This document shows positions 57,236-60,692 of a DNA stretch of 64,000 nt, in pieces (position 1 is the stretch's first letter; every line of letters starts with the position of its first letter). The notes beneath the pieces are model-generated. The model was not told where the DNA came from and did no database searches. It saw only the letters and a list, made by a program, of their open reading frames with translations. A program made the position numbers and the translations under genes. The stretch lies in the NCBI GenBank assembly GCA_913031125.1, contig CAJWFK010000013.1:1-64000 (forward strand), read 5' to 3'. This DNA comes from an uncultured Woeseia sp. GTDB taxonomy: Bacteria; Pseudomonadota; Gammaproteobacteria; Steroidobacterales; Woeseiaceae.

Positions 57236-57311
57236 TTGTCTGATAGACAACCAATACGAAAAAAATCAAATAAGCTGCCTCACGAAATAAATTTCGTTTT
57301 CGTCAGACAAC
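57235..57311 (+). other. Structured element downstream of crp
   Basis: Nested inverted repeats right after the crp stop: GTTGTCTGA (57235-57243) pairs perfectly with TCAGACAAC (57303-57311). The small palindrome TTGTCT-GAT-AGACAA spans 57236-57250, and ACGAAA-TAAA-TTTCGT (57282-57297), followed by four T's in all, lies inside. It may be the crp terminator, a 3'-UTR structure, or a binding site for a dimeric regulator of the next gene. Confidence 0.4.
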
Positions 57312-57339
57312 ACATTTATACATATTTTCCGATCAAGTC

Positions 57340-57366
57340 TTGACACATTTAAGTTGACCGTAGACT
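57340..57366 (+). promoter_or_regulatory. Possible promoter of the racemase-like gene
   Basis: A perfect TTGACA at 57340-57345 is followed 15 bases later by TAGACT (four of six to TATAAT). A start near 57373 would place the upstream GTG (57376) at the very 5' end, which favours the ATG at 57406 for the gene. Confidence 0.4.
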
Positions 57367-57405
57367 CTAGTATTTGTGCTAGAAAACTCTAACGGGAAGT
57401 TTGCG

Positions 57406-58197
57406 ATGAACTCCTTGCGTGATTCTGCTATTGAGAAAATTGTCAGCCGTAAAAATCACTCTTGTTATGGTATGGGCTTGGGCATCATGATTCTGGATGA
57501 TGTTTACCCCGGTCTACCGGGTGATGTAAGAAATGCCAGTGCATGGCCATATCCAATCCAATATGAAATTCTCGAAAATATAGATATAAAAGCCCTCTGC
57601 TATGCAAATAATATAGAACTAGCGAGTTATCTAGATACAATAATAAAAGCGGCAAAAAAATTAGAGAATATAGGGTGTCGGGCGGTTGCCGCAGAGTGTG
57701 GATTTTTCTCATTTTTTCAGGAAAAGGTAGCAGCAACGCTCTCTATTCCAACATTTATGTCCTCTTTGCTACAGGTTCCTTGGGCCCAACAACTCATTGG
57801 TCCTGAAAAAAAAGTCGCCATCATCACCTCTGATGCCGAACTAACTGATGAGCATCTGACCGCAGTTGGAATCTCACTCGATTCAAACTTTGAAGTTGTT
57901 GATCTCGACAAACGTATTGAGAATCAGGAATTTAATAAGCTATGGGAGGGGTCATATGGTCGTCCACGAAATCCTTCACTTCGTTATACCGTTGCCGAAA
58001 AACAGATTGTAGAGGCTATCACCGCTTACGTAGATGAAACTCCGGAAGTGGGCTCTTTAGTGTTAGAGTGCACAGGTTATCCACCCTTCGCACGCGCAAT
58101 TCAGCGCTCGGTTGATTTACCCATTTATAGCTGGGGAACACTTCTCGATTACGCCTGGTCAGTTGTAGTCCATCGAGACTATTACGGTCATGTATGA
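57406..58197 (+). CDS. Asp/Glu/hydantoin racemase superfamily protein
   Basis: A 263-residue protein with the two-domain aspartate/glutamate racemase fold. The two cysteines expected in the active site are in VAAECGFFSFF (about residue 108) and VLECTGYPPF (about 226), symmetric as in the cofactor-independent racemases. Long relatives of this type are usually annotated only as aspartate/glutamate racemase family, and many act on other acids such as maleate, arylmalonate or hydantoin. The substrate here is unknown. A GTG at 57376 would add ten residues. It is convergent with the tandem unknown genes. Confidence 0.72.
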   Translation: MNSLRDSAIEKIVSRKNHSCYGMGLGIMILDDVYPGLPGDVRNASAWPYPIQYEILENIDIKALCYANNIELASYLDTIIKAAKKLENIGCRAVAAECGFFSFFQEKVAATLSIPTFMSSLLQVPWAQQLIGPEKKVAIITSDAELTDEHLTAVGISLDSNFEVVDLDKRIENQEFNKLWEGSYGRPRNPSLRYTVAEKQIVEAITAYVDETPEVGSLVLECTGYPPFARAIQRSVDLPIYSWGTLLDYAWSVVVHRDYYGHV

Positions 58198-58229
58198 AAT
58201 CAGAAATTCTATGGCGTCCCTCAACGGGT

Positions 58230-59084
58230 TTAACTAACGAAAGGTATATGTCTCAAACTATCTGAAATATCTACGGGTGCAACGGAAACATAACGCGCCA
58301 TCCCGCCCATCATCGCATCACCGCCAATCCCATATTCACTGTCGTATCCATACAAATGGAAATCATCATCGCCAGTCCCCCAACCACCATGGTTACCAGC
58401 CAGGAAAATCACTCGAGTTTGGGGCTCATTTGGGTCAACCCTATTGTATGGATGCCAAACGCCCATCTTCTTTGTATTGTAGCGATCACGGTATTTATCA
58501 AGATAGGCGTTATTAGCCTCAACCCCGCCAGCCCGAACAATCATGTTCGGATCATCTTTTAAGATCTCAAATTCTTCATAACCTCTCAAAGATTGTCGTG
58601 CGAGTTCATAATCTATGATGACGCCATACCGAATCGGAGGCAGGTCACTAATACCCTGTTTGAACTCTTCATATGGGTAAACCGGAACTTCAGTCCCATC
58701 AGGCAGCTTACCTTCCAATACATCACGTGCCTCTTGCTGAGTTATCTTTCCCGCATATTGACCGGTAAACCCATCAACATTAGAACGGTCCACACTTGCT
58801 CGGTATACCCGTTCGTAACGTTCTGGAGATGCAAATATACCGCCCCCATGAATTGCTACAATGACATGATTGCCCTGGGGCGTTGTTACAACACTCTCTT
58901 CTGAGTAAGACGTAAACCACGTATTCCAGATAATATTGTCGTAGTCAGCGTGCGTTCTGGCATGCAGCAATTGCGGCATGGATGCTACAAAACCCTCTTC
59001 ACCGGCATAAGTAAGTGCACGTTCTAAAGCGCTGGACATATGGGATTCAAAGACGATTTCGCCTTCCATTTGAACGTCCTTCAT
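58230..59084 (-). CDS. Unknown-family protein, copy A of a tandem pair
   Basis: A 284-residue protein I do not recognise. It has no signal peptide, no membrane segment and no cysteines in conserved motifs. It is closely similar along its whole length to the gene just upstream (59116-59991). Shared blocks are GFVASMPQL-HAR (about 32-44), NTWF-SYSEE, TPQGNHV followed by IHGGGI-ASPER (about 68-90), LPDGTEVPVYP (about 129-139), YGVI-DYELARQS, LKDDPNMI and a closing ARYV-VAP segment. Such strict conservation of polar and glycine blocks suggests a real catalytic or binding function. AGGAAG precedes the ATG. It is the last gene in the rpe direction and convergent with the racemase-like gene. Confidence 0.75.
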   Translation of the reverse strand: MKDVQMEGEIVFESHMSSALERALTYAGEEGFVASMPQLLHARTHADYDNIIWNTWFTSYSEESVVTTPQGNHVIVAIHGGGIFASPERYERVYRASVDRSNVDGFTGQYAGKITQQEARDVLEGKLPDGTEVPVYPYEEFKQGISDLPPIRYGVIIDYELARQSLRGYEEFEILKDDPNMIVRAGGVEANNAYLDKYRDRYNTKKMGVWHPYNRVDPNEPQTRVIFLAGNHGGWGTGDDDFHLYGYDSEYGIGGDAMMGGMARYVSVAPVDISDSLRHIPFVS

Positions 59085-59115
59085 TTCATCTTCCTATGCA
59101 TATTGAAAACTCTGT

Positions 59116-59991
59116 TCAACTGCCGAACGACAAATATCGCAGGCTTGTTGATGGGTCGTAAGGTGCCACCGCAACATAGCGCGCGATTCCTCCTCCGCCG
59201 CCGCCGTCACCGCTTAGACCATAATCGCTGTTATAGCCGTATTCTCTCTGCTTACGTGAAGCGGTATCGAAATCATCGGCATCGCTTCCTTGACCGCCCC
59301 GATTGCCAGCCAACGTCAGCAGCCTCGTTTGTGGTTGCTCCGGTCCAATACGGTTGTAGGCATGCCAATGCCCCATCACTTTGGTGTTATTACGACGCTG
59401 ATACTTGTCAAGATAGGAAATAGCCGCTTCGGTACCGCCAACTCGGGCAATCATGTTCGGATCATCCTTCAGCACCTCAAAATCTACGTATCCACTGAAA
59501 GATTGCCTGGCCAGCTCATAGTCAAGAATCACGCCGTAGCGCATAGGTAAATCATTAATGCCTTGTTTGAATTCTGCAAATGGGTAAACAGGTACCTCGG
59601 TTCCATCCGGTAGCCTGCCCTCTAGAACTTCATGCGCCTCGTGTTCGCTAATCTTAGCGGCGAATTGTCCCGTGAAACCGTGTTCGCTGCGGTGATCCGT
59701 ACTGGCGTAATACATCTTCTTAAATCTTTCTGGAGAAGCGTAAATACCGCCGCCGTGAATCACCACCACAACATGATTACCTTGCGGCGTAACCACTACA
59801 TTTTCTTCAGAGTACGAGTTGAACCAAGTGTTCCATAATATGTTGTCATATGATGCATTGGTTCGTGCGTGTATTAACTGCGGCATCGATGCCACAAAAC
59901 CCTTTTGCCCAGCATGTATAATAGCTCGCTCCAATGCGACCACCCTTTGGGATTCGAAGAAAATCTTCGCTTCCATTTCAACATTGTTCAT
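59116..59991 (-). CDS. Unknown-family protein, copy B of a tandem pair
   Basis: A 291-residue paralog of the 58230-59084 gene, with more than half of aligned residues identical by eye and the same start pattern (MEMEA-I-FES-like). It differs mainly near the C-terminus, where about eight extra residues (DTASRKQRE region) and a glycine run GDGGGGGGIARY appear. It lacks a signal peptide. It begins 23 bases after the rpe stop on the same strand, and copy A begins 31 bases after it, so djlA-rpe-B-A may be one transcript. No known domain is evident to me; the HGGG motif resembles an oxyanion-hole motif of some hydrolases, but there is no matching GxSxG. Confidence 0.75.
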   Translation of the reverse strand: MNNVEMEAKIFFESQRVVALERAIIHAGQKGFVASMPQLIHARTNASYDNILWNTWFNSYSEENVVVTPQGNHVVVVIHGGGIYASPERFKKMYYASTDHRSEHGFTGQFAAKISEHEAHEVLEGRLPDGTEVPVYPFAEFKQGINDLPMRYGVILDYELARQSFSGYVDFEVLKDDPNMIARVGGTEAAISYLDKYQRRNNTKVMGHWHAYNRIGPEQPQTRLLTLAGNRGGQGSDADDFDTASRKQREYGYNSDYGLSGDGGGGGGIARYVAVAPYDPSTSLRYLSFGS

Positions 59992-60014
59992 TCTATTTCT
60001 TGCCTAAGTATTTG

Positions 60015-60692
60015 TTAGCTTCCGGTACGTGCAGCTTTAATTTCTGCTTTCATCTTTGCGATTGTAGCCGAGTAGTCTAGACTGCCAAAAATCGCCGAAC
60101 CTGCTACAAAGGTATCGGCACCTGCAGCCGCTATATTTTTAATATTGTCAACTTTTACCCCGCCATCTATCTCCAAGCGAATTTCCTTACCACTCTGATC
60201 TATGAGTTTCCGCACGGTTTCCAATTTAGAAAGAGAAGAATCGATAAACTTCTGCCCACCAAATCCGGGATTAACGGACATTAAAAGAATGATGTCGAGG
60301 TCTTCAAGCACGTGTTCCAACCAATCTAAAGGTGTAGCGGGATTGAATACCAGACCAGCCTTACATCCATTATCATGAATCATACCTATAGTACGATGTA
60401 CATGACGGCTAGCCTCTGGATGAAATGTTATGTAATTTGCACCAGCTCCTGCAAAGTCGGGAATTATGTTATCCACTGGCTCGACCATAAGGTGCACGTC
60501 AATTGGTGCCTGTATTCCAAAGTCGCGCAAAGATTTGCAGATCATCGGACCTATAGTTAAGTTGGGGACAAAATGATTATCCATCACGTCGAAGTGGATA
60601 ATGTCAGCTCCGGCATCCAAAACGGCAGAGACATCTTCACCTAGTCGAGCGAAATCAGCAGAAAGAATAGAGGGCGCGATCAAAGGTTTCAC
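60015..60692 (-). CDS. rpe: Ribulose-phosphate 3-epimerase
   Basis: Interconverts ribulose 5-phosphate and xylulose 5-phosphate in the pentose phosphate pathway. It is a TIM barrel of 225 residues. [34 protein letters not shown] (metal-binding His and catalytic Asp), [20 protein letters not shown] and LEIDGGVK are all intact. The downstream gph/trpS genes of enterics are replaced here by the two unknown paralogs. Confidence 0.95.

What the first reader, a model, noticed from the sequence alone, without database searches (positions are those of the whole stretch)
58230..59991. Tandem pair of an unrecognised protein family behind rpe
Two adjacent full-length genes (284 and 291 codons) encode close paralogs that fit no family I know. 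Seen directly: long shared blocks (GFVASMPQL-HAR, IHGGGI-ASPER, LPDGTEVPVYP, YGVI-DYELARQS, LKDDPNMI), no signal peptide, no transmembrane segment, and a difference concentrated in one C-terminal insertion with a six-glycine run. Retention of both copies after duplication suggests either a hetero-oligomer or two substrates. The spacing (23 and 31 bases) suggests cotranscription with rpe, and they converge on a racemase-superfamily gene. This is the best candidate for a new system in the window.
Basis: partly seen in the sequence, partly recalled or inferred. Interest (0 to 1): 0.75.

Follow-up and report, generated by a model that had tools for sequence, protein, structure and literature searches.

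The report
AvpA-fold lectin-like protein pair, no retroelement
Two neighbouring bacterial genes make proteins with the lectin-like shape of AvpA, an archaeal protein whose binding site is scrambled by a mutation machine; here the machine is absent, the site is fixed, and the proteins come in matched pairs, often beside genes for importing and using methylated nutrients.

Summary
The two genes are real and exactly placed: B (58230-59084, minus) and A (59116-59991, minus), 63% identical. They are not foldless orphans. Both match AvpA (PDB 5ioo), the C-type-lectin-fold variable protein of an archaeal diversity-generating retroelement (DGR). Sequence E-values are 3e-14 and 2e-11; predicted models superpose on 206 of AvpA's 209 resolved residues (Z 27 and 26). 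The 'insertion with six glycines' is the counterpart of AvpA's variable binding loop.

They are not DGR targets. The genome shows no reverse transcriptase and no template repeat. Within orthologous classes the loop is as conserved as the core (75% vs 74% identity); between classes it diverges most (35% vs 61%). The loop therefore marks fixed specificities.

The family is rare and multicopy (up to 8 per genome) in gammaproteobacterial metagenome genomes. Two thirds of the genes sit in tight tandem pairs. Many lie in a conserved cluster with solute-binding protein, permease, IclR, betaine-demethylase-type (MTTB) and homocysteine methyltransferases.

Linkage to rpe is incidental: nine of nine informative same-genus genomes lack the 2.8 kb block (pair plus racemase-like gene). 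The racemase-like gene accompanies no other copy found.

Best reading: heteromeric small-ligand-binding proteins for methylated-compound use (inferred, untested).

The parts
59116..59991 (-). Gene A: AvpA-type C-type-lectin-fold protein, 291 aa, no signal peptide
   Evidence: 5ioo Z 26.4, 206 residues, rmsd 1.7
58230..59084 (-). Gene B: AvpA-type C-type-lectin-fold protein, 284 aa, no signal peptide
   Evidence: 5ioo Z 27.3, 206 residues, rmsd 1.7; Foldseek E 2.4e-16
59185..59313 (-). A: residues 227-269, equivalent of the AvpA variable region (binding loop), with the six-glycine run
   Evidence: low pLDDT loop just before strand 270-277, which aligns to AvpA beta5
58299..58403 (-). B: residues 228-262, equivalent of the AvpA variable region (binding loop)
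   Evidence: low pLDDT loop just before strand 263-270
57236..60014 (.). Block (racemase-like gene, B, A) present here and absent between the crp-like gene and rpe of 9 same-genus genomes
57406..58197 (+). Asp/Glu-racemase-superfamily gene (PRK07475-like), convergent with B; not linked to other family members
   Evidence: a GTG start at 57376 is also possible
60015..60692 (-). rpe, ribulose-phosphate 3-epimerase; flanking core gene, not part of the system

Best explanation
[quoted passage not shown] The scaffold is conserved; one C-terminal loop, the position that AvpA's retroelement hypermutates, sets specificity. In this bacterial branch the loop is genetically fixed and each orthologous class keeps its own loop (shown). 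Members are kept as tight tandem pairs of two different classes, most simply because the two chains form a hetero-oligomer with a composite binding site (inferred). From the clusters in which most relatives lie (solute-binding protein, PotBC-type permease, IclR regulator, MTTB-type and homocysteine methyltransferases, SAM methyltransferase, aldo-keto reductases), the likeliest job is binding of small methylated-amine or sulfonium-type nutrients or intermediates: in the periplasm for the Tat-exported class, in the cytoplasm for others such as A and B (inferred). The window pair is a copy inserted downstream of rpe; rpe and the racemase are incidental.
For: Homology: phmmer to 5ioo E 2.7e-14 (B) and 1.7e-11 (A); models pLDDT 88 and 89; Foldseek E 2.4e-16, TM 0.87 by AvpA length, next hit E 0.7; Z 27.3 and 26.4 with the next chains at 6 or less. 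Published AvpA motifs (PMC5006420): GxxVVVYAH corresponds to GNHVVVxxHG, RFxGV to RYVAV. No DGR: no RT in the own genome; RTs tested in carriers are group II intron maturases; no DNA repeat of either loop except a 72% decayed gene remnant. Fixed loops: within-class loop identity 0.75 vs core 0.74, between-class 0.35 vs 0.61; the difference holds at matched core identity; dN about a tenth of dS in alignable orthologue pairs. Pairs: 32 of 49 genes in 16 tandem pairs, gaps -62 to +31. The window pair's order (A then B) is reversed in three other genomes (B then A), yet A groups with the other A copies at 100/100. Cluster; PF06253 and PF02574 are modules of marine glycine betaine demethylation (PMC12478193). 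Tat-like RR signals in the pair class beside TonB receptors.
Against: No ligand, oligomer or activity is known for any member; AvpA itself is reported monomeric (PMC5006420). The window pair itself is not in the methylated-compound cluster, and no class I copy seen here lies next to MTTB (contexts include an oligopeptide transporter plus PrpD, and a chromate transporter), so its ligand may differ. An enzymatic role is not excluded (invariant H79, E62, E63, D158, R184, H211 in B numbering). Some members are unpaired (17 of 49, several at contig edges or one gene away from a partner).
Confidence: 0.5

Rival explanations
1. They are enzymes on the CLec scaffold (as formylglycine-generating enzyme and the sulfoxide synthases use an FGE-type CLec fold), catalysing steps in methylated-compound degradation, with one catalytic and one accessory chain per pair.
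For: Embedded in catabolic gene clusters with methyltransferases, aldo-keto reductases, PhyH and a DMSP-lyase-family cupin; strictly conserved polar residues across 45 sequences; several paralogues per cluster could act on successive intermediates.
Against: The fold is the AvpA subclass, not FGE (PMC5006420); no solved homologue has a known activity; the class-specific change sits in the ligand-binding loop rather than at a recognisable catalytic site.
Confidence: 0.27
2. They are targets of a diversity-generating retroelement (DGR) whose reverse transcriptase was lost from the assembly or acts from elsewhere.
For: Homology to a DGR variable protein and loop-centred divergence between paralogues; the genome is 94% complete, so a little could be missing.
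Against: No RT in the own genome, only group II maturases among the RTs tested in carriers, no template repeat, few AAY codons in the loops (2 of 43 and 1 of 35), loops as conserved as the core among orthologues.
Confidence: 0.03
3. Cell-surface or host-interaction adhesins of symbionts, as proposed for AvpA-like proteins of nanosized archaea.
For: Several carriers appear to be sponge-associated bins (inferred from isolate names); one pair class has Tat-type signals.
Against: A, B and most others have no signal peptide; linkage is to transport and one-carbon genes, not secretion or adhesion genes.
Confidence: 0.1
4. One reading: a sugar-phosphate or amino-acid pathway with rpe and the racemase.
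For: Close spacing to rpe and convergence with the racemase.
Against: The block is an insertion unique to this genome in its genus; the racemase is linked to no other copy and no other family locus examined contains rpe among the recurrent neighbours.
Confidence: 0.05

Closest known systems
AvpA (PDB 5ioo), archaeal DGR variable protein, and AvpA-like proteins of groundwater archaea (PMC5006420)
   Same: Fold over 206 of 209 resolved residues at 1.7 A, two of three family motifs clearly kept, variable loop at the same place before the last strand
   Different: Gammaproteobacterial; 27-29% identity in the structural alignment; no RT or template; loop fixed within orthologue classes; tandem paralogue pairs; one class Tat-exported; lies in metabolic clusters
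Woesearchaeota AvpA-like proteins not tied to DGRs (KHO51710 and others, PMC5006420 Table 3)
   Same: AvpA fold predicted, no DGR
   Different: 17-34% identical to AvpA; their context and pairing are not described in that paper; not compared here
TaqVP, Mtd, TvpA (FGE-type CLec DGR proteins)
   Same: CLec superfold, variable site before the last strand
   Different: Different CLec subclass; TaqVP scores only Z 6.0 to B
Marine glycine betaine demethylation (Mtg) genes, PF06253 and PF02574 (PMC12478193)
   Same: The same enzyme families neighbour many family members
   Different: A protein of this family is not mentioned in the passages read; the window pair itself is not next to these genes

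Membership tests
AvpA-type CLec-fold family | Significant sequence similarity to AvpA | tested here: met
   E 2.7e-14 and 1.7e-11 in a search of 177,635 sequences
AvpA-type CLec-fold family | AvpA subclass of the CLec fold, including inserts 2-4 | tested here: met
   Z 27.3 and 26.4 over 206 of 209 residues; next PDB chains at Z 6 or less
AvpA-type CLec-fold family | Motif GxxVVVYAH | tested here: met
   GNHVIVAIHG / GNHVVVVIHG; G71 and H79 invariant in 45 sequences
AvpA-type CLec-fold family | Motif HPxxxPFxG | tested here: inconclusive
   Aligned segment is DPNMIVRAGG: P and G kept, H replaced by D
AvpA-type CLec-fold family | Motif RFxGV on the last strand | tested here: met
   ARYVSV / ARYVAV, R264 (B) / R271 (A) invariant
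DGR variable protein | Linked or at least encoded DGR-type reverse transcriptase | tested here: not met
   No PF00078 match in the own genome; RTs tested in carrier genomes are group II maturases
DGR variable protein | Template repeat near-identical to the variable region | tested here: not met
   DNA search of both loops in the own genome: only a 72% decayed gene copy
DGR variable protein | Adenine-derived hypervariation, AAY-rich variable codons | tested here: not met
   2 of 43 and 1 of 35 AAY codons; loop conserved among orthologues
Periplasmic or secreted binding protein | Export signal | tested here: not met
   A and B begin with the domain itself; only the TonB-linked pair class has RR signals (read by eye and pattern; no signal-peptide predictor available)
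C-type lectin with carbohydrate binding | Binding of a sugar or other ligand | not testable with these tools
   needs purified protein
Obligate hetero-oligomer | A and B bind each other | not testable with these tools

The most novel reading that the evidence does not exclude
The AvpA CLec scaffold, known mainly as a retroelement-scrambled protein of unknown function, has a stable bacterial branch of heteromeric binding or catalytic pairs for methylated osmolytes. That would give the first functional context for AvpA-type proteins and suggest that the DGR recruited an existing ligand-binding fold.
Probability: 0.3. Interest if true: 0.7.

Novelty: new variant of a known kind. Interest (0 to 1): 0.5.

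Why it matters
AvpA-type proteins have a structure but no known function. This family provides many bacterial members without a retroelement, in tandem pairs and in a conserved metabolic cluster that suggests testable ligands. It would also show the same fold and the same loop used in two ways: fixed specificity here, programmed variation in archaea.

Tried and rejected
Pfam, NCBIfam, PHROGs: no match for A or B. IMG/VR scan, phage and plasmid records, BFVD folds: no relatives. DGR target: rejected. C-terminal fragments on C55 and in G002 considered as silent recombination cassettes: both sit where an intact copy stands in the conserved cluster (upstream of the solute-binding gene; upstream of the aldo-keto reductases) and are decayed, so they are remnants. 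Recent foreign origin by composition: G+C of the inserted block (45.3%) equals the window (45.5%), uninformative. Promoter, terminator and Rfam scans of the region: nothing above chance. DMSP degradation as the specific pathway: the neighbouring cupin hits PF16867, but by eye the expected cupin histidines are missing, so it is not claimed. Circularity of the class definition: the main classes recur in a tree built without the loop, though class Ib is paraphyletic in both trees.

Full report
OBSERVATION. The two ORFs lie exactly where stated, on the minus strand, 284 (B) and 291 (A) codons, 31 bases apart and 23 bases downstream of rpe. They are 63% identical over their length. Neither matches Pfam, NCBIfam or PHROGs. 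The divergence is indeed concentrated near the C-terminus: 68% identity in the core and 47% in the loop.

IDENTITY. A sequence search of the PDB returns one significant entry for each protein: 5ioo, AvpA, E 2.7e-14 for B and 1.7e-11 for A, with matched stretches in both halves. [quoted passage not shown] Structure predictions from a 45-sequence alignment are confident (mean pLDDT 88.4 for B, 89.4 for A). B matches 5ioo by Foldseek at E 2.4e-16, TM 0.87 normalised to AvpA, with nothing else below E 0.7. VIA-align gives Z 27.3 (B) and 26.4 (A) over 206 of 209 residues at 1.7 A; the next chains are at Z 6.0 and 4.7. Two of AvpA's three published motifs are clearly present and the third is partial. 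It is thus the equivalent of AvpA's variable region (residues 181-203), and it is the low-confidence part of both models.

NOT A RETROELEMENT TARGET. The genome (94% complete) has no PF00078 reverse transcriptase. Five of 16 genomes searched with the family have RT matches; the nine RT ORFs tested, from four of them, are all group II intron maturases, and the fifth genome (G040) has only a sub-threshold hit that was not classified. Neither loop has a near-identical DNA repeat in the genome; the only match is a 72% decayed gene remnant on contig 55. The loops contain few AAY codons. Across 42 classified members, loop identity within orthologue classes is 0.75 against 0.74 for the core; between classes it is 0.35 against 0.61. 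The contrast holds at matched core identity (for example core about 0.65: 0.57 within, 0.39 between), and the main classes recur in a tree built without the loop. Class Ib (the B group) is paraphyletic with respect to Ia in both trees, so that one class is a convenience. In orthologue pairs where dS can be estimated, dN is about a tenth of dS. The loop is therefore a fixed, class-specific feature under purifying selection. That is the opposite of hypermutation.

FAMILY AND PAIRS. The own genome holds seven copies (one cut by a contig end) plus one remnant. The family is rare: 5 of 396 genomes of the order, one of them with only a remnant, and 1 of 398 in an even draw of the phylum, namely this genome itself. 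A scan of 84,980 species genomes gave 18 loci, nearly all in gammaproteobacterial MAGs; isolate names such as RHO, IRC and COS suggest sponge hosts (inference). Some handles are the same genome twice (G047 is G003; G573 is G040; G731 is G048, judged by identical coordinates). Carriers hold up to eight matches. Of 49 genes examined, 32 sit in 16 same-strand tandem pairs with gaps from -62 to +31 bases, most of them overlapping or within 9 bases. Pairs fall into three kinds: I (window type), II (long-loop class plus NTSMIN class) and III (two Tat-signal classes). In kind I the window has A upstream of B, whereas three other genomes have B upstream of A, although window A is the sister of the other A copies with full support. 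The duplication is therefore old, and the partners have stayed together through a change of order and through different genomic contexts.

CONTEXT. Kind II pairs and a further single class lie in a recurrent cluster: IclR, PotBC-like permease and a homocysteine S-methyltransferase or MTTB protein on one side; on the other, family member, solute-binding protein, SAM methyltransferase, family pair, aldo-keto reductases, PhyH and a DMSP-lyase-family cupin. Kind III pairs lie beside a TonB receptor, TPR-sulfotransferase and MTHFR genes and carry RR-type signal peptides by eye. MTTB (PF06253) and PF02574 are the substrate-binding and homocysteine modules of glycine betaine demethylation and methionine synthesis in marine bacteria (PMC12478193). 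The likeliest role is therefore recognition (or conversion) of methylated small molecules. This step is inference, and for the window pair it rests on homology alone, since kind I pairs have other neighbours.

LINK TO rpe AND RACEMASE. In nine same-genus genomes with the region assembled, the crp-like gene and rpe are adjacent tail to tail with about 5 to 150 bases between them; in the window 2.8 kb with the racemase-like gene, B and A lies there. The racemase is absent from the other 11 genus members searched and unlinked to the family elsewhere; distant homologues occur only in one other carrier. Cotranscription by read-through from rpe remains possible but would be a by-product of the insertion site.

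VERDICT. Observation confirmed; interpretation partly supported. The proteins belong to the AvpA-type CLec family but fail the tests for DGR variable proteins. I put about 0.97 on the fold and homology, about 0.97 on 'not a DGR target', about 0.6 on hetero-oligomeric pairing, and about 0.4 on ligand binding tied to methylated compounds.

Noticed in passing
L011 (own genome contig 55) about 2350-2544: Decayed C-terminal remnant of the family, with a frameshift and stops, directly upstream of a solute-binding lipoprotein gene 76% identical to the one in the contig 18 cluster.
   Followed up: yes
L095:1794-2567 (same-genus genome G002): Remnant of the last ~40 family residues at the end of an unrelated open frame, directly upstream of the aldo-keto reductase genes of the conserved cluster.
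   Followed up: partly
L087:5443-6978 (G046): One open frame holding a family domain whose middle (profile positions 163-248) is deleted, followed by a complete second domain with an RR-type signal between them.
   Followed up: no
L009:2468-3067 and relatives L093:5331-5927, L081:14578-15000: DMSP-lyase-family (PF16867) cupin in the cluster; read by eye, the expected cupin metal-ligand histidines seem missing in L009, so its chemistry may differ.
   Followed up: no
L096 (JAPPFO010000176.1, bin labelled Chloroflexota): A full-length family member in a contig binned as Chloroflexota; misbinning or horizontal transfer.
   Followed up: no
L010:12673-13998 and L080:647-2266: Tryptophan-halogenase-family genes flank the Tat-type pair region in two genomes, next to MTHFR and TPR-sulfotransferase genes.
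   Followed up: no
window 57406-58197: PRK07475-like racemase-superfamily gene found in this genome and, as distant homologues (28-30%), in only one other of 22 genomes searched.
   Followed up: partly
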